Source: an uncultured delta proteobacterium (GTDB taxonomy: Bacteria; Myxococcota_A; UBA9160; JAFDET01). From it: a stretch of DNA of 64,000 nt. The notes under the pieces are model-generated. The model saw nothing but the letters and a program-made list of their open reading frames with translations. It did not search any database and was not told where the DNA came from. Positions 36,664-45,640 of the stretch are shown one piece after another; within the stretch, counting starts at the first letter, position 1; every line of letters starts with the position of its first letter. Location of the stretch: NCBI GenBank assembly GCA_947259215.1, contig CAMYLJ010000010.1, forward strand, positions 11,891 through 75,890, given 5' to 3'. The position numbers and the translations under genes are program-made.

Positions 36664-39501
36664 ATGGTACGCGAGGGTCGGCCAGGGTCACCGGATCTCA
36701 GCGAGTTCGGGCTGAACGCGGGCCTGGTCGAGGAGATCCAGCAGCACTTCGAGGTGGACGCCGGATCGGTCCACCCGGACTGGGCCGGCGAGTTCGCGGA
36801 CGGCGCGGCGCCGCCGGCAGCGGAGCGGGTCCCCCCGGCGGCGGAGGGGAGCGCTGCCGCAGCGGTTCGCGCGATCGCGCCGGCGCCCGCGAACGGGCAG
36901 CTCGCCCCCCAGGTGGCGGACAAGCACGCCCGGGTGCTGCGCATGATCCACGCCTTCCGGGCGCGCGGGCACCGGGTCGCCGACACCGATCCCCTCGGCA
37001 GCCGGGACACCTACTTCCCGGAGCTCGATCCCGCGCACTACGGGTTCGGCAACGACGACCTCGACACGCGCTTCATCGCCGGCGACCTGCCGGGCGGTCC
37101 GATCCAGAGCCTGGGCGAGATCCTGGGCCGCCTGCGGCGGACCTATTGCGAGACCGTGGGCGTCGAGTTCACCCACCTGCAGGATCCCGGCCGCAAGCTC
37201 TGGCTCCAGCAGCAGCTGGAGGTGCAGGAGAACACGCCCCAGCTCGACACGGACGACCGGCTTCGCATCCTCGAGAAGCTGGATGCGGCGGAGCTCTTCG
37301 AACGCTTCCTCCACACCAAGTTCCTGGGCCAGAAGCGCTTCTCGCTCGAGGGCGCCGAGTCCCTGATCCCGTTGCTGGACGCCGTCGTCGAGGAGGCCGG
37401 GAGCAGTGGCGTGCAGGAGCTGGTGTTCGGCATGGCCCATCGCGGTCGCCTGAACGTGCTCTCCAACGTGATCGGGAAGTCCGTCGAGTCGATCTTCTCG
37501 GAGTTCGAGGACATCGAAGACATCGAGAGTCCCTTCGGCTCCGGCGACGTGAAGTACCACAAGGGCTACGTGCGGGACCGCCGCACGCGTTCGGGCAACC
37601 GCGTGCACCTCTCCCTCACGGGGAACCCGTCGCACCTCGAGGCGGTGGATCCCGTGGTGGTGGGGCGCGTGCGGGCCAAGCAGGTGCGCTCGGGCGACGT
37701 CGAGGGCCACACCATCATCCCGATCCTGATGCACGGCGACGCCGCCTTCGCAGGGCAGGGCATCGTCCCGGAGACCCTGAACCTCTCCAACGTCTCCGGC
37801 TACTCCACCGGGGGCACGCTTCACGTCGTGGTGAACAACCAGATCGGGTTCACGACCAACCCCTACGAGGCGCGCTCCACTCTCTACTGCACCGACGTCG
37901 CCAAGATGATCCAGGTGCCGATCTTCCACGTGAACGGAGACGACCCGGAGGCCGTGGTCCACTGCGCACTGCTGGCCATGGCCTATCGCCAGCGCTTCCT
38001 GTCCGACGTGGTGATCGACCTGGTCTGCTACCGGCGCCACGGCCACAACGAGGGCGACGATCCGAGCTTCACCCAGCCCCTGCTCTACGAGCGCATCCGC
38101 AAGCGCCCGTCGGTGCGGGAGCTGTATCGGGACCGTCTGATCGAGGCCGGGGTGCTCGACTCCGAGCGGTCCGCGCGCATGGAGGAGGATTTCCGGACGC
38201 AGCTCGACCAGGCGCTCCAGACCATCGAGAGCAACCCCCCGGGTCCCGACGAGCCCTACGAGCCGCGCGGCCCCTGGAGCGGCTTCTCGCGCACGCGCGA
38301 GGACGACGAGCCTGAGACCGGGGTGCCCGTCGAGCGGCTGGCCGCGATCGCCGAGGGCCTGGCGGCGCTGCCGGCGGGCTTCCGCGCGCACCCGAAGCTG
38401 CTGCCGATGCTCGAACGCCGCCGCAAGGTGGTGAGCGAGAACGGCCAGATCGACTGGGCCATGGGCGAGGCCCTGTCCTTCGGCTCGCTGCTGCTGGAAG
38501 GCACGCCGGTGCGCCTCTCCGGCCAGGACTCCACGCGCGGAACCTTCAGCCACCGGCACGCGGCGCTGGTGGATCAGCAGACCGGCGAGGAGTACGCGGC
38601 CCTGGACCACCTGACGGACACCCAGGCGCGCTTCTACGTCTACGACAGCATCCTGTCGGAGATGGCCGTGCTCGGTTTCGAGTACGGCTACAGCCTGGCC
38701 GACCCCACCACGCTCACCCTGTGGGAGGCGCAGTTCGGCGACTTCGTGAACGGCGCCCAGGTGATCCTCGACCAGTTCATCACCAGCGCCCACGTCAAAT
38801 GGCAGCGCATGAGCGGTCTGGTGATGCTGCTGCCCCACGGCTACGAGGGGCAGGGACCGGAGCATTCGAGCGCGCGCATCGAGCGCTTCCTCCAGCTGTG
38901 CGCCGAGGACAACCTCTCGGTGGTGAACTGCACGACGCCCGCCCAGTACTTCCACGTGCTGCGCCGTCAGATGCGTCGCAATTTCCGCGCCCCGCTGGTG
39001 ATCTTCACGCCGAAGAGCCTGCTGCGGCACAAGCGCGCGGTCTCGAAGCCCGAGGAGCTGGCGCGGGGCGGCTTCCGCACGGTGCTCGACGACGCGCTCG
39101 CGGCTGCGGACCCGAACTCCGTGAAGCGCCTGATCCTCTGCAGCGGCAAGGTCTACTACGACCTGCTGGCCGAGCGGGAAAGCCGCCACGGGCCCGACGA
39201 CGCGGGCGGCGTGGCGCTCGTGCGCGTCGAGCAGCTGTATCCGTGGCCCGTGGAGCGCGTGTCGCAGGCGGTCGCGCGCTACCCGGGATCCGAGCGGGTG
39301 GTGTGGTGCCAGGAGGAGCCGTCGAACATGGGCGGCTGGACGTTCGTGCGCGAGCGCATCCAGGACGCCCTCGGGGCGGGCCAGAAGCTCGCCTACGCGG
39401 GCCGCCCGGAGAGCGCGAGCCCCGCCACGGGCTCCGGTCGCATCCACCGCGAAGAGCAGGCGGGCCTGATCGCGGCCGCGTTCGACGGGCTCGACTCCTG
39501 A
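36664..39501 (+). CDS. sucA: 2-oxoglutarate dehydrogenase E1 component
   Basis: The 945-residue thiamine-diphosphate enzyme decarboxylates 2-oxoglutarate in the TCA cycle. It has the N-terminal E2-binding helix region (FGLNAGLVEEIQQHFE), KFLGQKRFSLEGAESLIPLL, VFGMAHRGRLNVLSNVIGK, the ThDP/Mg motif GDAAFAGQGIVPETLNLS, HLEAVDPVVVGRVRAKQ, RRHGHNEGDDPSFTQPL and the C-terminal SLADPTTLTLWEAQFGDF. The E2 (sucB) and E3 genes are not adjacent, which is unusual but known. An SD (GAGGAG) precedes the ATG. Confidence 0.97.
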   Translation: MVREGRPGSPDLSEFGLNAGLVEEIQQHFEVDAGSVHPDWAGEFADGAAPPAAERVPPAAEGSAAAAVRAIAPAPANGQLAPQVADKHARVLRMIHAFRARGHRVADTDPLGSRDTYFPELDPAHYGFGNDDLDTRFIAGDLPGGPIQSLGEILGRLRRTYCETVGVEFTHLQDPGRKLWLQQQLEVQENTPQLDTDDRLRILEKLDAAELFERFLHTKFLGQKRFSLEGAESLIPLLDAVVEEAGSSGVQELVFGMAHRGRLNVLSNVIGKSVESIFSEFEDIEDIESPFGSGDVKYHKGYVRDRRTRSGNRVHLSLTGNPSHLEAVDPVVVGRVRAKQVRSGDVEGHTIIPILMHGDAAFAGQGIVPETLNLSNVSGYSTGGTLHVVVNNQIGFTTNPYEARSTLYCTDVAKMIQVPIFHVNGDDPEAVVHCALLAMAYRQRFLSDVVIDLVCYRRHGHNEGDDPSFTQPLLYERIRKRPSVRELYRDRLIEAGVLDSERSARMEEDFRTQLDQALQTIESNPPGPDEPYEPRGPWSGFSRTREDDEPETGVPVERLAAIAEGLAALPAGFRAHPKLLPMLERRRKVVSENGQIDWAMGEALSFGSLLLEGTPVRLSGQDSTRGTFSHRHAALVDQQTGEEYAALDHLTDTQARFYVYDSILSEMAVLGFEYGYSLADPTTLTLWEAQFGDFVNGAQVILDQFITSAHVKWQRMSGLVMLLPHGYEGQGPEHSSARIERFLQLCAEDNLSVVNCTTPAQYFHVLRRQMRRNFRAPLVIFTPKSLLRHKRAVSKPEELARGGFRTVLDDALAAADPNSVKRLILCSGKVYYDLLAERESRHGPDDAGGVALVRVEQLYPWPVERVSQAVARYPGSERVVWCQEEPSNMGGWTFVRERIQDALGAGQKLAYAGRPESASPATGSGRIHREEQAGLIAAAFDGLDS

Positions 39502-39506
39502 TCCCG

Positions 39507-40988
39507 ATGCCGCGCTGGCACCGGCTGCTCGTGGCCGGGCTGGCCGCGCTGCTGATGGCGGCCGACGTTCCCCCCGGCCAGCTGCTGCTCGACCGCGGCG
39601 CACAGGCCCTGGCCGCGGGAGACCTGGCGGAGGCCCGGTCACGCTACCTGCGCGCCCTGGAGCTGGCGCCGACCGAGGCGGAGCGGGCGCGAGCCGAGGC
39701 CGGGCTCGGCCGGGTGTCGCTCGCCGAGGGCGATACCGACGCGGCCGCGCGCCGGTTCGAGAGCGCACTCGCCCGGAATCCCGACTGTGCGCCGGCGCTG
39801 CGGGGCACGGCGTCCCTGGCCGAGCGGTCCGGGGATCGGGAGCGGGCGCACGACCTGCTGCGGCGCGCCATCGAGGCGGATCCCTGGAGCGAGGCGTCCC
39901 ACGCCCAGCGCTTCGCCCTGACCGGGCTCGCCCCCGGCGAGCCGCCGGCGTCCGAGGCCGCCGCGCGGGCGCGGGCCGCCGAGCATCCCTACGACCCGCG
40001 CGCCAACCTGGCCGCCGGCCGCCTGCGGGCGAGTCGGGGCGAGACGGAAGCGGCGCGCGCCCACTTGGAGCAGGCGATCTGGTTCGGCGACCTCGCGCCG
40101 GCTGCCGCGCGCCAGGCGTACGCCCTGCTGGTCCAGCTGGATCCCGGCTGGAAGGAGCGGCGCTACGTGCCCGTGCACGTCTTCGCCGACGAGACGCTGC
40201 GCGCCCGCCCGGACTGGGAGTTCCGCCTGCGCCTGCGTCTGCTGGAGATCTCGGCGGCGCTGGACGGCGTGCTCGCCACCGCCTTCGCGCCCGCCAGCGT
40301 GACCGGCTTCGACGCGCACGGCGCTGGAGAACGCCTGGAGAACCTGGAGGCCGCGTTTCGGGCCAGCCGACCGCAGGTGCCCGGTCGCGGAATCCTGGCC
40401 GTCTTCACCGAGAGGCCCCTGCGTCGGAGCGGGGGCAACCTCGGGCAGGCCACGTTCCTGGGCCGGCTGCTGGTGGTCCGCAGCGAGCCGAAGGAGCGGG
40501 GCCTGCGCACGCTGGCCCACGAGCTCATCCATCTCTACGGCGGCGTCCACGTCTCTGCCGAGGCGCCTTCCCTGATGAACCCTGCGGGCCGCGACTGGAA
40601 CCTGGATCCGGCCAACGCCCGGATCGTGCGGGCGCTGCGCGTCCGGACCTTCGGTCCCGGCGGGCGGGAGCCCAACGTCTTGGCCCGGATCGACCTGGAG
40701 GAGACGACGAACGCCTACCTGAACGCGATCCGCACCAACCTCCTGCTCCGGCGGCTCGGCCTGGAGAAGGGCCAGCGACGCCGCGTGCGCGAGCTCGATC
40801 CGCATCTGGGCGACGTCAGCTCCTTCGCGGCGGAGCTCCTGTGGCGGAGCGAGCGGCGGGTGGAGGCCGTGCGGCTGCTCGAGGTGGCCGGAACGCTCTA
40901 CGGGCCGCGCACGCCCCGCGGCCGCGCCACCCGGATCCGCGCCGACGAGCTGCGGCAGGCGCTCAAAGCCTACTACGGGGTCGACTGA
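39507..40988 (+). CDS. TPR protein with a metzincin-type metalloprotease domain
   Basis: The 493-residue protein has a signal peptide (about 1-20) and TPR-like repeats (about 25-220: DRGAQALAAGDLAEARSRYL, RFESALARNPDCAPALRGTA). A protease domain follows, with the full zinc signature HELIHLYGGVH (His338, Glu339, His342, Gly345, His348), matching HExxHxxGxxH, and a Met-turn candidate SLMNP (Met357). Bacterial metzincins are often secreted or periplasmic. The C-terminal 130 residues are helical. It starts 5 nt after sucA. Its end overlaps the convergent ATPase gene by 16 bp. Substrate unknown. Confidence 0.8.
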   Translation: MPRWHRLLVAGLAALLMAADVPPGQLLLDRGAQALAAGDLAEARSRYLRALELAPTEAERARAEAGLGRVSLAEGDTDAAARRFESALARNPDCAPALRGTASLAERSGDRERAHDLLRRAIEADPWSEASHAQRFALTGLAPGEPPASEAAARARAAEHPYDPRANLAAGRLRASRGETEAARAHLEQAIWFGDLAPAAARQAYALLVQLDPGWKERRYVPVHVFADETLRARPDWEFRLRLRLLEISAALDGVLATAFAPASVTGFDAHGAGERLENLEAAFRASRPQVPGRGILAVFTERPLRRSGGNLGQATFLGRLLVVRSEPKERGLRTLAHELIHLYGGVHVSAEAPSLMNPAGRDWNLDPANARIVRALRVRTFGPGGREPNVLARIDLEETTNAYLNAIRTNLLLRRLGLEKGQRRRVRELDPHLGDVSSFAAELLWRSERRVEAVRLLEVAGTLYGPRTPRGRATRIRADELRQALKAYYGVD

Positions 40989-42676
40989 ATCCGCAGGCTG
41001 CGGAGCCGGTTCAACGCCGCCGCGATCTCGAAGCGCCGGGGTCGCGCCAGGCGTCCCGGATGGGCGCCGCGGCGGTAGAAGGGGTCGAGCATGTCGACGC
41101 CCTCGGCGTCGAGCAGTGATTCGAGCCCGTCGAGGATCGCGGGCAGCGCGGCTCCGGCGAAGCGCTCCCGGGCCTGGTGCAGGGCGCAAGCGGCGGCGCG
41201 GGTCTGGCTGCGATCGACCAGCTGGTCCACCCCGCGCAGGTCGATGCGTTCGCGTCCGAAGCCGGCTTCCTCCGCCGAGCGCACGTCGATCTTCACGTCG
41301 CGCCGACCGCGCGACGGATCCAGGCTCGTCGGGTCGGGCGTGCGCGGGGCGGGGCGCTCGAGGGGCTCCGACACCTCGCGGCGGCGGCCGGTGGGGTGCG
41401 CTTCCGCCACGGCGCGGGCCTCGCGGGTGCGGAGCTCGGGCCGGTAGTCGCGCATGGCGACGACGGTGTCGGCGACGTCGAAGTAGTCGCCGCAGCCTCC
41501 CATTACGAGCACGCTGGAGATTCCGAGCCGCTCGTGCAGCTCGCGCACCCGGTCGACGAAGGGCGTGATCGGCTCGTCGGCGCGGGGCACGAGCTCCTGC
41601 ATGCGGGCGTCGCGCACCATGAAGTTGCTGGCGCAGGTGTCCTCGTCCAGCAGCAGGACCGATGCGCCCGCCTCGACGGCCTCCAGAATGCCCGCGGCCT
41701 GGCTGGTGCTGCCGCTGGCCAGCTCGCTCGAGAAGGCGCGGGTGCTGCGGCCGCCGGGCAGGTCGCCGATGAAGGCGCTGATGTCCACCCGCTCCACTCG
41801 GCGTCCGTCCTCGGCGCGCACCTTCACGGCCGCGGCGTCGGTCACGACCCACTCGCGGCCGTCGCCCGGCACGTGGGGATAGACACCGCGCTCGAGGGCG
41901 CGCAGCAGGGTGGACTTGCCGTGGTAGCCGCCGCCCACGATCAGGGTCACGCCGCGCGGGATGCCCATCCCGGCCACGCGGCCGGGCGCGTGGGGCACCG
42001 CGAGCTCCACCCGCAGCGCGTCGGGGGAGACGAAGACGACGGCGTCCTCGAGCGGCGCCTGGGATACGCCGCTCGCCCTGGGCAGGATCGCGCCCTCGCC
42101 GACGAAGGCCACCAGACCGCGTTCCCCCAGCTGGGCGCGGATCGCCTCCTGGTTCTCCACGCAGTCGAGGAAGCGCCGTCCGGCGTCGCGATCGGCCTCC
42201 CGCAAGCCGCTCTGGGCGATGCGCGGCAGCTCCCGGCAGAGCAGGGACTCCGCCTCGCGGCCGAGCACGCGCCGGCCGGCGGCCGGAAGCCCCACCTCGA
42301 GACGTGCCTCGAGCCAGTCGCGGGTCACCCGGACCGCGCCGCGCTCCAGCACCTCCGCCCCGCCGGCGTCGATCTCCACCAGGCCGCTCCGGCCGGAGCC
42401 GCTCCGGCGCGCAGCGCCCGCCGCCCGCGCCACGCTGCGCGCGAGGAAGTCCTCGAGGGCGATGCGGCGCGTCCGGCTTTCGACGTCCTCGGCGGGCCAG
42501 CTGTTCGGCAGTCGCACGCGCATCCGCGAGGGCGCCGCGAAGGGGTCGCCCTGCACGTGGTCGACGAAGAGCTCGAAGTCGCCCTCCGCGTGACGTCCCC
42601 GGCAGTCGCGGTAGGCCTTGTAGCCGCGCCCGTCGATGCGGGCGAGGGTGTGGCTCAGGTCTGCGAGCGTAGCCAT
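40973..42676 (-). CDS. Predicted ATPase of the ABC class (COG3044-like)
   Basis: The 567-residue cytoplasmic protein has a Walker A motif in LIVGGGYHGKSTLLRAL (about 248-256), an ABC-signature-like SSELASGSTSQAAGI (316-330) and Walker B ASVLLLDEDTCASNFM (Asp344, Glu345). The N-terminal 200 residues form the domain typical of this family (DGRGYKAYRDCRGRH). It is an ABC-type ATPase without transmembrane domains; its role is unknown. The start overlaps the end of the M1 peptidase gene by 22 bp. Confidence 0.88.
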   Translation of the reverse strand: MATLADLSHTLARIDGRGYKAYRDCRGRHAEGDFELFVDHVQGDPFAAPSRMRVRLPNSWPAEDVESRTRRIALEDFLARSVARAAGAARRSGSGRSGLVEIDAGGAEVLERGAVRVTRDWLEARLEVGLPAAGRRVLGREAESLLCRELPRIAQSGLREADRDAGRRFLDCVENQEAIRAQLGERGLVAFVGEGAILPRASGVSQAPLEDAVVFVSPDALRVELAVPHAPGRVAGMGIPRGVTLIVGGGYHGKSTLLRALERGVYPHVPGDGREWVVTDAAAVKVRAEDGRRVERVDISAFIGDLPGGRSTRAFSSELASGSTSQAAGILEAVEAGASVLLLDEDTCASNFMVRDARMQELVPRADEPITPFVDRVRELHERLGISSVLVMGGCGDYFDVADTVVAMRDYRPELRTREARAVAEAHPTGRRREVSEPLERPAPRTPDPTSLDPSRGRRDVKIDVRSAEEAGFGRERIDLRGVDQLVDRSQTRAAACALHQARERFAGAALPAILDGLESLLDAEGVDMLDPFYRRGAHPGRLARPRRFEIAAALNRLRSLRIQSTP

Positions 42677-45168
42677 CGCTGCAGCACCGGCGCGGCGCGT
42701 CGCCGCAGCGCCGCGTTGGTGGAGAAGCGTTCGAGCGCCTGGCGCAGCGCGCGGTCGCCAGTGGGGACCGGATGGCTGCGGAAGTGCTCCGCCACCTGGC
42801 TGCGGTACTCCGCGGTCTGGAGGCGCGGGGTGGCCTCGATCAGGCGCGTCACCAGCATGGGAGGCATGCGCTTGCTGAGTGCCGGCCAGCGGCGTTGGGC
42901 GAAGGCCCAGCAGCGCTCGCGCGCGTCGCGATTCTGGAGCAGGCGCACGAGCAGGAAGGCCACGTCCTGGGTGGGCACGGCCTCGGTCAGGGTCAGGCGC
43001 AGGCTGCGATCCACCAGCCGCGCCCGGCCGACCGAGCCGAGTCCCATCAGGAAGCGGCGGCGCTCCTGGGGTGTGCCGGACTTCTCCGCCGCCTCGAGCA
43101 GCGCTGCGTAGCGGGCCGGGTCCGCGTCGCGCGCGGCCAGGGCCACCACCGCGTCGGCCAGGTTCGCGTCGAGAGAGCCGCGGTCGTCCAGGTAGGCCGC
43201 GAAGCGGCGCGACGCTTCTTCGCGGACCGGCTTCCAGTTGGCCACCTCGCCGAGGATGCGCACGATCTGGGCGCGCCGCAGGCGCGTCGGATCGGTTTCG
43301 CCGGGCGCCGGGTCCCAGCCCAGCTCCGCGAGCTGGCCCGACCAGGTTGCGAGGATCCAGGCGCGGAGTGCGTCGCTGCCGAGCTGGTCTTCGAGGAAGT
43401 CGAGGATGCCCGCGAGGTGGGCGAGGACGTCCGGGTCCGTCTCGTTTCCGAAGGCGCCGGCGAGCTCGATCCAGCCGTCCGCCGCCGCGCGCCCCGCCCG
43501 CACCGCGGCCCACTGGTGCCCGAGGAGCCCCATGCGCTCCACCGGCGACAGTGCGCCCAGGTTTGCCGCCAGGTCCTGCAGCCCCGCTGGGTCGTGCAGC
43601 ACCCGGAAGAAGCCGCCCTCCTCGGCGTTGCCGTACAGGAAGCGGGCGCGCTCGACGGGCACGCGCTCGCGCGCACGCGTCAGGAGGTGGCGCAGGGTGC
43701 GCCGCCCGGCGCGGCCCACCCACGGCACCGGCCAGCGCGTGCGGTCGTCCCGGGTCGGGCGCAGCCGGAAGCGTTCCTGGCGCAGCTCGAGCTCGTCGCC
43801 CACGCGCCGCAGCGAGACCAGCGGGAAGCCCGACTGCTCGATCCAGGCGCGCACCACGGGCTCCACGTCCTGCCCCGAGGCCTCCGACAGCGCCTGCCAC
43901 AGGTCCGACGCGGTGGCGTTGGCCTCGCGGTGGCGCCGGATGTAGCGACGCACACCCTTGCGGAACGCCGCGGGCCCCAGGTAGCGCTCGATCATTCGCA
44001 CCACCGAGGCACCCTTCTCGTAGGTGATCAGGTCGAAGTTGGCGGTGGCCTCTTCGGGGCTGCGCACCTCGATGTAGATGGGGTGCGTGGTGGAGAGCGC
44101 ATCCAGGTCCATGGCGGCTGCGCGGAAGTGCTGGAAGTCGTGCCACATCTTCCACTCGGGTCGCCACAGGTCCACCACGTGGAAGGCCATCCAGGTGGCG
44201 AAAGCCTCGTTCAGCCACAGGTCGTCCCACCAGGCCATGGTGACGAGGTCGCCGTACCACATGTGGGCCAGCTCGTGGCACAGCACCTCCGCCACGCGCT
44301 TCTTCTCCTGGAGGGTCGCCGTGGCCGGATCCACCAGCAGCAGGGTCTCGCGGAAGAAGACGGCGCCGGCGTTCTCCATCGCGCCGGCCTCGAAGTCCGG
44401 CACCGCCACCAGGTCGAGCTTCTCGTAGGGGTAGGGCAGGCCGAACCAGGTCTCGAGGCGGGCGAGTGTCTCGCGTGCGGTCTCCAGGGCGAAGGCGGTC
44501 AGGTGCCCCTTGCCCGGCACGTGCCAGACGCGGATCTCGGTGTCGCCGCAGAGGACGGGCTGCGAGGCCTCGAGCTCGCCCACCGCGAGCGCCACCAGGT
44601 AGGTGGAGAGCGGCGGCGTCTCGCGGAAGGTCACCCGCTTGCGGGTGCCCTCCCGCTCCTCGCGTTCGATGGGCGCGTTCGACAGCACCTGGTTGGCTGC
44701 GTCCGTCGTCACGTGCATCCGGAAGCGGGCCTTCATGGCCGGCTCGTCGAAGCAGGGAAAGAAGCGGCGCGCGTCCGTGGCCTCGAGCTGGCTGAAGGCG
44801 TAGCGGCGCTCGTCGGAGGAGGCGGCGTAGAGTCCGCGCAGGTCCTTGCGCAGGCGACCGGAGAAGGCGATGCGCAGGGTCGCCTCGCCGGCCGGGAGGC
44901 CCTCGCCCAGGTCCACCACCACGGTCTCGCGCTCCGGTCGTGGCTGCAGGGCGCCGCGCAGGCTGCGTCCGCCGCACTCGACGAGCGCGCGCGAGAGCGT
45001 CAGGTCGACCGCGTGCAGCTCCAGGTTCCGGCGCGGCTTGGCCAGCTGCAGCTCGATGGCCACCTCGCCGCGGAAGCGGCTGCTGCGGGCGGGATCGACC
45101 TCGATCTGCACGTCCACCCGGGAGGGACGCACGTCGGGAGTGAGGCGGACGCTGCGGCGTCTGCTCAC
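42655..45168 (-). CDS. M1-family aminopeptidase (PepN-like)
   Basis: The 837-residue zinc aminopeptidase has an N-terminal beta domain, the exopeptidase motif GAMENAGAVFF and the zinc site HELAHMWYGDLVTMAWWDD with the third ligand in LWLNEAFATWMAF (HExxH-x18-E, HELAH at about residues 297-301). The C-terminal half is the usual helical ERAP1/PepN-type domain. GTG 45168 opens the domain, and the stop of a 36-codon upstream frame overlaps it. It removes N-terminal residues in peptide turnover; no signal peptide was seen. Confidence 0.93.
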   Translation of the reverse strand: MSRRRSVRLTPDVRPSRVDVQIEVDPARSSRFRGEVAIELQLAKPRRNLELHAVDLTLSRALVECGGRSLRGALQPRPERETVVVDLGEGLPAGEATLRIAFSGRLRKDLRGLYAASSDERRYAFSQLEATDARRFFPCFDEPAMKARFRMHVTTDAANQVLSNAPIEREEREGTRKRVTFRETPPLSTYLVALAVGELEASQPVLCGDTEIRVWHVPGKGHLTAFALETARETLARLETWFGLPYPYEKLDLVAVPDFEAGAMENAGAVFFRETLLLVDPATATLQEKKRVAEVLCHELAHMWYGDLVTMAWWDDLWLNEAFATWMAFHVVDLWRPEWKMWHDFQHFRAAAMDLDALSTTHPIYIEVRSPEEATANFDLITYEKGASVVRMIERYLGPAAFRKGVRRYIRRHREANATASDLWQALSEASGQDVEPVVRAWIEQSGFPLVSLRRVGDELELRQERFRLRPTRDDRTRWPVPWVGRAGRRTLRHLLTRARERVPVERARFLYGNAEEGGFFRVLHDPAGLQDLAANLGALSPVERMGLLGHQWAAVRAGRAAADGWIELAGAFGNETDPDVLAHLAGILDFLEDQLGSDALRAWILATWSGQLAELGWDPAPGETDPTRLRRAQIVRILGEVANWKPVREEASRRFAAYLDDRGSLDANLADAVVALAARDADPARYAALLEAAEKSGTPQERRRFLMGLGSVGRARLVDRSLRLTLTEAVPTQDVAFLLVRLLQNRDARERCWAFAQRRWPALSKRMPPMLVTRLIEATPRLQTAEYRSQVAEHFRSHPVPTGDRALRQALERFSTNAALRRRAAPVLQRWLRSQT

Positions 45169-45275
45169 GGGGTGTCCGGCGGCGGCACGTGGCTGTACGC
45201 GCGGATCCGCTGCGACGCGGCGACCGGGGACTCGTCGAAGAGCGGGTCGAAGATCCGAGGGGCGGAGGGCTGCAC
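45165..45275 (-). CDS. Possible 36-residue protein or leader ORF upstream of the M1 aminopeptidase
   Basis: A minus-strand frame with native-looking codon use ends in TGA exactly overlapping the aminopeptidase GTG (GTGA). It contains RIFDPLFDESPVAASQRI and a proline-rich end HVPPPDTP. The ATG at 45287 lies inside a TATAAT box (45291-45286) and cannot be in the mRNA, so GTG 45275, 10 nt behind that box, is the likelier start. It could be a real small protein or only a coupling leader. Confidence 0.4.
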   Translation of the reverse strand: MQPSAPRIFDPLFDESPVAASQRIRAYSHVPPPDTP

Positions 45276-45285
45276 GGCGCGCGCC

Positions 45286-45311
45286 ATTATACCCCCCGGA
45301 TCCGGTAGAAT
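45286..45311. promoter_or_regulatory. Divergent -10 boxes (aminopeptidase / coiled-coil operon)
   Basis: TATAAT on the minus strand (45291-45286) and TAGAAT on the plus strand (45306-45311) are 14 bp apart. The minus transcript would start near 45279; the plus transcript has a GGGAGGGGGA SD before ATG 45332. No TTGACA was found for either. Confidence 0.5.
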
Positions 45312-45331
45312 CCGCTCGGGAGGGGGATTCC

Positions 45332-45640
45332 ATGGCCGAACCGACGCGCGAGGCGAACCGCTGGGAGAAGCTCCAGCGCCTGACCCGCGACGCGTCCGAC
45401 CGCCTGCGCCAGCGCGCGCGCCTCACCCGGCTGCGGGCCCGCGTGTCGCGCCTGGAGTCGCAGGTGGAGACGGAGAAGAGGCGCGTGGGCCGCGCCCTGT
45501 ACCCGCTGGTGGAGGACGCCACGATTTCCGTCGGGCTGCCGGAGGTGCAGGAGGGGGTGGAGACGATCGCCCGCCTGCGCCAGCAGATCCGCAGCTCGGT
45601 CGAACGGATCGAGGAGCTCGAGGCGGGCGACGACGCGTGA
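45332..45640 (+). CDS. Coiled-coil small protein
   Basis: The 102-residue, highly charged protein is mostly helical with heptad-like leucine/arginine spacing (TRLRARVSRLESQVETEKRR, then IARLRQQIRSSVERIEELEA). A short non-helical segment DATISVGLPEV separates two coils. No signal peptide. Family not recognised; homology to envelope- or chromosome-associated coiled coils cannot be claimed. The following lipoprotein gene overlaps by GTGA. Confidence 0.7.
   Translation: MAEPTREANRWEKLQRLTRDASDRLRQRARLTRLRARVSRLESQVETEKRRVGRALYPLVEDATISVGLPEVQEGVETIARLRQQIRSSVERIEELEAGDDA

What the first reader, a model, noticed from the sequence alone, without database searches (positions are those of the whole stretch)
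39507..40988. TPR repeats fused to a metzincin-type zinc protease next to sucA
HELIHLYGGVH matches the full metzincin zinc signature HExxHxxGxxH, followed nine residues later by a candidate Met-turn SLMNP. Metzincins are uncommon in such a TPR-protease arrangement. The exported protein may process envelope proteins.
Basis: partly seen in the sequence, partly recalled or inferred. Interest (0 to 1): 0.5.

Follow-up and report, generated by a model that had tools for sequence, protein, structure and literature searches.

The report
TPR–metzincin protease coupled to sucA
This gene encodes a probably exported bacterial zinc protease of the same general fold as snake-venom and ADAM proteases, attached to a protein-binding TPR region and sitting just behind a central-metabolism gene; it is a genuine but modest new branch of a known kind of enzyme.

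Summary
Window 39507-40988 (+) encodes 493 residues with TPR repeats (residues 25-191), then HELIHLYGGVH (338-348) and SLMNP (Met357). It is not a chance motif: across 22 homologous cores from 22 genomes the only eight invariant columns are G, G, H, E, H, G, H and M, the metzincin signature plus the Met-turn Met. AlphaFold models (pLDDT 87.7 whole, 92.0 core) match adamalysin/ADAM metzincins best (Z 17.9 and 17.3; Foldseek E 1.5e-9). No Pfam peptidase model reaches its cut-off on the window protein: a divergent metzincin branch.

"Uncommon arrangement" needs correcting. In other orders of the phylum, 15 of 31 homologous ORFs carry TPRs, all on the C-terminal side; the tree separates the two arrangements. 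In 9 of 18 carrier genomes of the order the gene directly follows sucA. One same-family genome has an empty site.

Best reading: an envelope-anchored or periplasmic protease whose TPRs bind partners or substrates, working somewhat like BepA. Protease: likely. Envelope: likely. BepA-like role: inferred. Novelty: new variant of a known kind.

The parts
36664..39501 (+). sucA, 2-oxoglutarate dehydrogenase E1, immediately upstream
   Evidence: NCBIfam NF006914 1264.9 bits; Pfam
39507..40988 (+). TPR-metzincin gene, 493 aa
   Evidence: homologues in 17 other genomes of the order
39507..39563 (+). signal-peptide-like N-terminus (PRWHR then hydrophobic stretch, no lipobox Cys)
   Evidence: read by eye from the sequence; many relatives show a Cys at the corresponding place
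39579..40079 (+). TPR solenoid, residues 25-191
   Evidence: Pfam TPR_19, TPR_12, TPR_14, TPR_2 above cut-off; helices in the model
40155..40655 (+). metzincin catalytic domain, residues 217-383
   Evidence: VIA-align Z 17.9, rmsd 2.8, 164 residues to 1wni; core-alone model Z 17.3
40518..40550 (+). zinc motif HELIHLYGGVH, residues 338-348
   Evidence: H, E, H, G, H invariant in 22 of 22 cores
40569..40583 (+). SLMNP, Met-turn candidate, residues 355-359
   Evidence: Met invariant in 22 of 22 cores
40668..40976 (+). C-terminal helical hairpins, residues 388-490
   Evidence: predicted helices 388-394, 397-416, 432-447, 451-465, 470-490; conserved in order relatives
40973..42676 (-). convergent ABC-class ATPase gene (PF09818), overlapping the 3' end by 16 nt; conserved neighbour
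   Evidence: Pfam 401.8 bits; neighbour in relatives

Best explanation
The gene encodes a catalytically competent zinc endopeptidase of the metzincin type, exported to the cell envelope, whose N-terminal TPR solenoid (and possibly the C-terminal helical hairpins) recruits or gates its protein clients. Steps: (1) metzincin fold with three-His zinc site, Glu base and Met-turn: shown as far as sequence and predicted structure can show it (about 0.95). (2) Active protease: inferred from strict conservation (about 0.9). (3) Envelope location, as a lipoprotein in many relatives and probably periplasmic or membrane-tethered here, where the Cys is missing: inferred from N-termini read by eye (about 0.8). 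(4) TPRs position the protease on an envelope complex or partner for quality control or maturation, as the M48 protease BepA does with its TPR domain: inferred by analogy (about 0.35). (5) Made together with SucA through translational coupling: inferred from gene spacing (about 0.75 for the window); the physiological reason is unknown and may be only a convenient constant expression.
For: 22-core alignment with only G,G,H,E,H,G,H,M invariant. Full model pLDDT 87.7, pTM 0.83; core model pLDDT 92.0, pTM 0.89. Fold matches: ADAM33 1r55 E 1.5e-9, adamalysins Z about 16-18 over about 164 residues. A profile of the cores finds fragilysin-family chain 4on1 (E 3.7e-4) and, more weakly, archaemetzincin and karilysin chains in sequence space; in the 4on1 alignment HExxHxxGxxH and the Met are paired. 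TPR. In homologous cores of the same class Pfam reprolysin/matrixin models appear weakly. sucA adjacency in 9 of 18 carriers; in 8 of those 9 an in-frame possible start lies from 1 nt before to 27 nt after the first base of the sucA stop. One clade of the order, 100/100 support. BepA comparison: PMC7950410, passages.
Against: No activity, zinc or localisation data. No lipobox in the window protein itself. The gene is patchy: 18 of 79 genomes of the order searched, so it is not a core envelope factor. In 8 of 18 carriers sucA is not directly upstream (G004, G015, G022, G026, G035, G038, G055, G058), so the coupling is not obligatory. Nothing here tests a BepA-like role; domain order differs from BepA.
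Confidence: 0.6

Rival explanations
1. A secreted or surface protease for feeding on, or competing with, other organisms, rather than housekeeping; the TPRs only stabilise it or attach it to the surface.
For: Many bacterial metzincins are secreted (general knowledge); the gene is patchy, 18 of 79 order genomes; the same genome has another, secreted-looking reprolysin-type metzincin on contig C11.
Against: Lipobox-like Cys in many relatives suggests anchoring; co-location with sucA points to constant expression; TPRs typically bind proteins inside cell compartments (general knowledge).
Confidence: 0.25
2. A non-catalytic or regulatory metal-binding TPR protein that keeps the metzincin fold but no longer cleaves.
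For: No curated peptidase family recognises the window protein.
Against: The catalytic residues are nearly the only residues invariant over 22 diverged cores; pseudo-enzymes usually lose them.
Confidence: 0.07
3. A cytosolic partner of SucA that trims or regulates the 2-oxoglutarate dehydrogenase complex.
For: Directly behind sucA with near-overlapping reading frames in 8 of 9 adjacent cases.
Against: Hydrophobic N-termini with lipobox-like Cys in many relatives; genomes with the gene away from sucA, and sucA genomes without it.
Confidence: 0.06
4. A chance HExxHxxGxxH motif in an ordinary TPR protein.
For: The bare DNA pattern occurs 12 times in this genome.
Against: Conservation, fold, expected about 3e-5 per protein.
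Confidence: 0.01

Closest known systems
Adamalysin/ADAM (M12B, reprolysin) metzincins
   Same: Nearest solved folds (Z 16-18); HExxHxxGxxH and Met-turn Met.
   Different: About 11-22% identity in the structural alignments; no reprolysin Pfam model matches the window protein; only one Cys in the whole protein, so no disulfides of the kind that I recall for adamalysins; residue after the third His is hydrophobic (Val in the window), not the Asp that I recall for adamalysins; TPRs instead of pro- and disintegrin domains.
Reprolysin_5/M10-like metzincins with C-terminal TPR in other orders of the phylum (e.g. L079, L088, L093)
   Same: Homologous core, TPR in the same protein.
   Different: TPRs lie after the protease, not before it; separate branches of the tree.
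Metzincin proteins of family f12 in the same class (e.g. L041, L043)
   Same: Closest branch to the order's clade (96/86 for the joint group); invariant HExxHxxGxxH and Met.
   Different: No TPR in 6 of 6 scanned; a different N-terminal domain that Pfam does not name.
BepA (M48 protease with TPR domain, E. coli)
   Same: Works-like candidate: exported zinc protease with TPR domain that binds client complexes (PMC7950410, passages).
   Different: Another clan with another fold; protease first and TPR second.
M94 mini-zincins with TPR (PMC3890501, passages)
   Same: TPR fused to a small zincin, some with signal peptides.
   Different: HExxHxxGxxD motif and no Met-turn in M94; here the third ligand is His and the Met is invariant.

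Membership tests
Metzincin clan | HExxHxxGxxH zinc motif | tested here: met
   Residues 338-348; H, E, H, G, H invariant in 22 of 22 cores
Metzincin clan | Met-turn methionine downstream of the third His (in sequence) | tested here: met
   Met357 aligned and invariant in 22 of 22; paired with the Met of 4on1 in the profile alignment
Metzincin clan | Met placed under the zinc site in three dimensions | not testable with these tools
   Model coordinates were not returned
Metzincin clan | Metzincin catalytic fold | tested here: met
   Z 17.9 and 17.3; Foldseek E 1.5e-9, TM 0.66
Metzincin clan | Zinc-dependent proteolysis | not testable with these tools
   Needs the bench
M12B adamalysin/reprolysin | Reaches a curated reprolysin model | tested here: not met
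   No reprolysin family among matches of the window protein at E up to 10
M12B adamalysin/reprolysin | Asp after the third His (recalled) | tested here: not met
   Val in the window; V, L, I or M in 21 of 22 cores, S in one
M10 matrixin | Reaches Pfam Peptidase_M10 | tested here: not met
   Not matched by the window protein; matched weakly by 8 of 22 homologous cores
M54 archaemetzincin | HExxHxxGxxHCx4CxMx17CxxC | tested here: not met
   The only Cys is residue 94; motif as quoted in the abstract of PMC3427221
M48 BepA | M48 protease domain first, TPR domain C-terminal | tested here: not met
   No M48 model among Pfam matches, metzincin fold, TPR N-terminal
M94 mini-zincin | Asp as third ligand and no Met-turn | tested here: not met
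   His348 and Met357
TPR proteins | TPR models above the curated cut-off | tested here: met
   TPR_19 43.6 against 25 bits, and others

The most novel reading that the evidence does not exclude
A separate metzincin family, not recognised by the Pfam or NCBIfam copies searched, in which TPR-bearing, membrane-anchored proteases act as a metzincin counterpart of BepA in outer-membrane quality control; TPR and metzincin were joined at least twice in this phylum, once on each side of the protease, which would point to selection for protease-scaffold coupling, and one branch has become translationally coupled to sucA.
Probability: 0.15. Interest if true: 0.55.

Novelty: new variant of a known kind. 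Interest (0 to 1): 0.3.

Why it matters
It shows an unannotated branch of metzincin proteases in Myxococcota/Deltaproteobacteria-labelled bacteria (titles) that the family models searched miss, and that the TPR-protease pairing known from BepA (M48) and from M94 zincins also occurs, in both domain orders, with metzincins. If the role in envelope quality control were shown, it would be a convergent solution to the same problem.

Tried and rejected
Rejected: chance motif (conservation and fold speak against it); cytosolic SucA-processing factor (signal-like N-termini, gene also away from sucA); direct membership in M10, M54, M12B, M94 or M48 (see Membership tests). The antisense ORFs of several hundred codons opposite sucA and this gene are taken as products of the high G+C content.

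Led nowhere: the search for related loci with the single protein found nothing, with an alignment 11 loci. NCBIfam gave only models far below cut-off for the window protein, nearly all TPR proteins. The first PDB sequence search, with the alignment that includes the C-terminus, gave TPR chains and a few other weak matches. The whole-protein Foldseek list is headed by TPR chains, ADAM33 first appearing at rank 37. Literature searches for metzincin with tetratricopeptide (9 papers), metzincin with myxococc (7), HExxHxxGxxH with bacteria and Met-turn (53, 15 listed), reprolysin with tetratricopeptide, lipoprotein and bacteria (0), reprolysin with TPR and bacterial (4), matrixin with tetratricopeptide repeat (7) listed no paper on such proteins by title; the library is open-access only. 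An astacin review lists TPR among domains found with astacins (PMC9848320, passage), so a TPR next to some metzincin is not unheard of. Archaemetzincin chain 2x7m does appear in the core Foldseek list (rank 26). Families absent from the VIA list are not thereby excluded.

Dropped rows: of 39 genomes outside the class with a core match, regions were fetched from 30 (32 regions), mostly the stronger matches; 9 genomes were not looked at. L096 gave no hit in the ORF search; L097 was left out of the tree (96 residues only); L019/L038 (G004) is in no alignment because the core runs into N; L020/L046 is a second fragment in G038; L012, L015 and L044 are cut by contig ends, so for L012 and L015 the N-terminal TPR is assumed from the clade.

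Full report
Observation. The ORF at 39507-40988 (+) encodes 493 residues. Residues 25-191 match TPR models above their curated cut-offs. HELIHLYGGVH lies at 338-348 and Met357, in SLMNP, nine residues after H348. The gene's ATG is 5 nt after the stop of sucA (36664-39501), which is a clear 2-oxoglutarate dehydrogenase E1. The codon-position G+C of this frame is like that of sucA, while the long antisense ORF has the shifted pattern expected of a shadow frame.

Is the motif more than chance? Relatives were found in 11 of 40 near genomes (own genome included) and, with a profile, in 25 of 90 genomes of the class: 18 of the 79 genomes of the own order and 7 of 11 of another order (family label f12). 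In an alignment of ten proteins from the order (three of them cut by contig ends), H338, E339, H342, G345, H348 and M357 are among the invariant columns. In an alignment of 22 cores (15 from the order, 7 from f12; identity to the window core 23-53%) just eight columns are invariant: G, G, H, E, H, G, H and M. The composition-based expectation of the motif is about 3e-5 per protein. In the whole genome the DNA form of the motif occurs 12 times against 2 for the reversed control; one of the others, on contig C11, lies in an ordinary reprolysin-type metzincin gene, which shows how such a gene scores when Pfam does know it (E 4.7e-23). So the bare motif would have been weak evidence, but its conservation is strong.

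Fold. The whole protein, modelled with the ten-row alignment, has mean pLDDT 87.7 and pTM 0.83. VIA-align puts residues 217-383 on adamalysins, best 1wni Z 17.9, rmsd 2.8, 164 residues. The core alone, with 22 rows, has pLDDT 92.0 and pTM 0.89; Foldseek's best match is ADAM33 (1r55, E 1.5e-9, TM 0.66 by the query), and VIA-align gives Z 17.3 to 1wni (rmsd 2.9, 164 residues) and about 16-17 to other adamalysins, ADAMs and ADAMTS chains. The predicted order of elements (strand, helix, strand, helix, strand, short strand, strand, long helix, loop with the third His and Met, helix) is that expected of a metzincin. By sequence, the core profile reaches fragilysin-family chain 4on1 at E 3.7e-4 and, between 0.016 and 0.084, fragilysin, archaemetzincin and karilysin chains.

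Family. The window core matches no peptidase family in Pfam above cut-off (best SprT-like, E 0.18; whole protein TPR and chance models only) and none in NCBIfam. Among the 22 cores, Reprolysin_5 matches 14, Reprolysin_2 13 and Matrixin 8, all weakly (E up to 10 allowed). The residue after the third His, which marks the classical metzincin families (Glu in astacins, PMC9848320, passage; Asp in adamalysins, recalled), is V, L, I or M in 21 of 22 cores and S in one. The protein has a single Cys. It is therefore a metzincin by fold and motif, but not a member of M12B, M10 or M54 by the features tested.

TPR arrangement. Searching 377 genomes of the phylum with the core profile gave matches in 64, 39 of them outside the class. 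I fetched 32 regions from 30 of these 39; 31 ORFs matched the core profile. Of these 31, 15 carry TPRs at E up to 0.01 (L082 only weakly), always after the protease. In the window's order the TPRs come first in 7 of 7 proteins scanned, and in f12 there are none in 6 of 6. A maximum-likelihood tree of 52 cores puts the 15 order members in one group (100/100), next to f12 (joint group 96/86), apart from the proteins with C-terminal TPRs. So TPRs were probably joined to this protease at least twice, or moved; the root is only a midpoint. The claim that the arrangement is uncommon is therefore not right for this phylum, although I found no paper describing it in the searches listed under Tried and rejected.

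Genome context. Among the 18 order genomes with the gene, sucA lies directly upstream on the same strand in 9 (G000, G002, G003, G008, G012, G054, G056, G057, G064). In 8 of those 9 an in-frame possible start lies between 1 nt before and 27 nt after the first base of the sucA stop; in G002, G003 and G064 the candidates that keep the whole signal sequence are not ATG or GTG but CTG or ATC, and in G008 it is a TTG, overlapping or touching the stop. This suggests translational coupling, by inference. In 8 carriers sucA is not directly upstream: none within 1.7 to 4.7 kb upstream in G004, G022, G035, G055 and G058, none in about 1 kb left of the contig in G038, and in G015 and G026 the stretch behind sucA lacks the gene, which lies on another contig. 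In G068 a contig end leaves it open. Downstream, the convergent ABC-class ATPase and M1 aminopeptidase genes of the window are also found in G022, G035, G055 and G056 within about 8 kb. In G001, of the same family, sucA is followed directly by the convergent ATPase and aminopeptidase, without the protease. In 20 genomes in which the gene was not found, the stretch after sucA (1.9 to 4.1 kb) shows no convincing remnant with the three profiles; the only matches were L110 (core profile E 0.006, inside the aminopeptidase reading frame) and L120 (full-length profile E 4e-4, over profile positions 67-163, before the zinc motif). The sucA end itself was seen by BLAST in 16 of the 20. The gene is thus an optional insert, or a loss, at a fixed junction.

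Mechanism. The N-terminus looks like a signal sequence. Many relatives have a Cys with a small residue before it after the hydrophobic stretch, as in lipoproteins (for example LVLAACASP in G003), two (G012, G038) look like ordinary signal peptides, and the window protein has no Cys there (by eye, no predictor was run). The most likely picture is a membrane-anchored or periplasmic zinc protease whose TPRs hold a client or a partner complex near the active site. BepA gives a worked example of such a pairing: its TPR domain cups the protease and contacts BamA, BamC, BamD and LptD (PMC7950410, passages). That analogy is about function only; the clans and the domain order differ. Which client, why sucA, and how latency is kept without a Cys switch (the sole Cys, residue 94, lies in the TPRs) are open.

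Verdict. A real, conserved, probably active metzincin with TPRs; ordinary in kind, new as a branch. Interest 0.3.

Noticed in passing
L141:1155-2714 (-), contig C11 of the own genome: A second metzincin gene with HELGHNTGLVH, a signal-like N-terminus and a Gly/Ser-rich linker; a typical reprolysin-like protease (PF13583 E 4.7e-23).
   Followed up: partly
L039-L045 (family f12, same class): Lipoprotein-like proteins with an unnamed N-terminal domain and the same metzincin core at the C-terminus; no TPR in 6 of 6 scanned.
   Followed up: partly
L097:912-2003 (-): A homologous metzincin core followed by MORN repeats (PF02493, E 1.9e-14).
   Followed up: no
window 40973-42676 (-) and 42655-45408 (-): ABC-class ATPase (PF09818) and M1 aminopeptidase genes that overlap and stay together beside this locus in several genomes of the order.
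   Followed up: partly
sucA stop/protease start in L047, L048, L033, L035: Apparent CTG, ATC or TTG starts overlapping or touching the sucA stop codon, with no nearby ATG or GTG that keeps the whole signal sequence; unusual start codons or stop-restart coupling.
   Followed up: partly
window 36688-39768 (-), 39639-41852 (-): Antisense ORFs of 1026 and 737 codons opposite sucA and this gene, probably shadows of the high G+C.
   Followed up: partly
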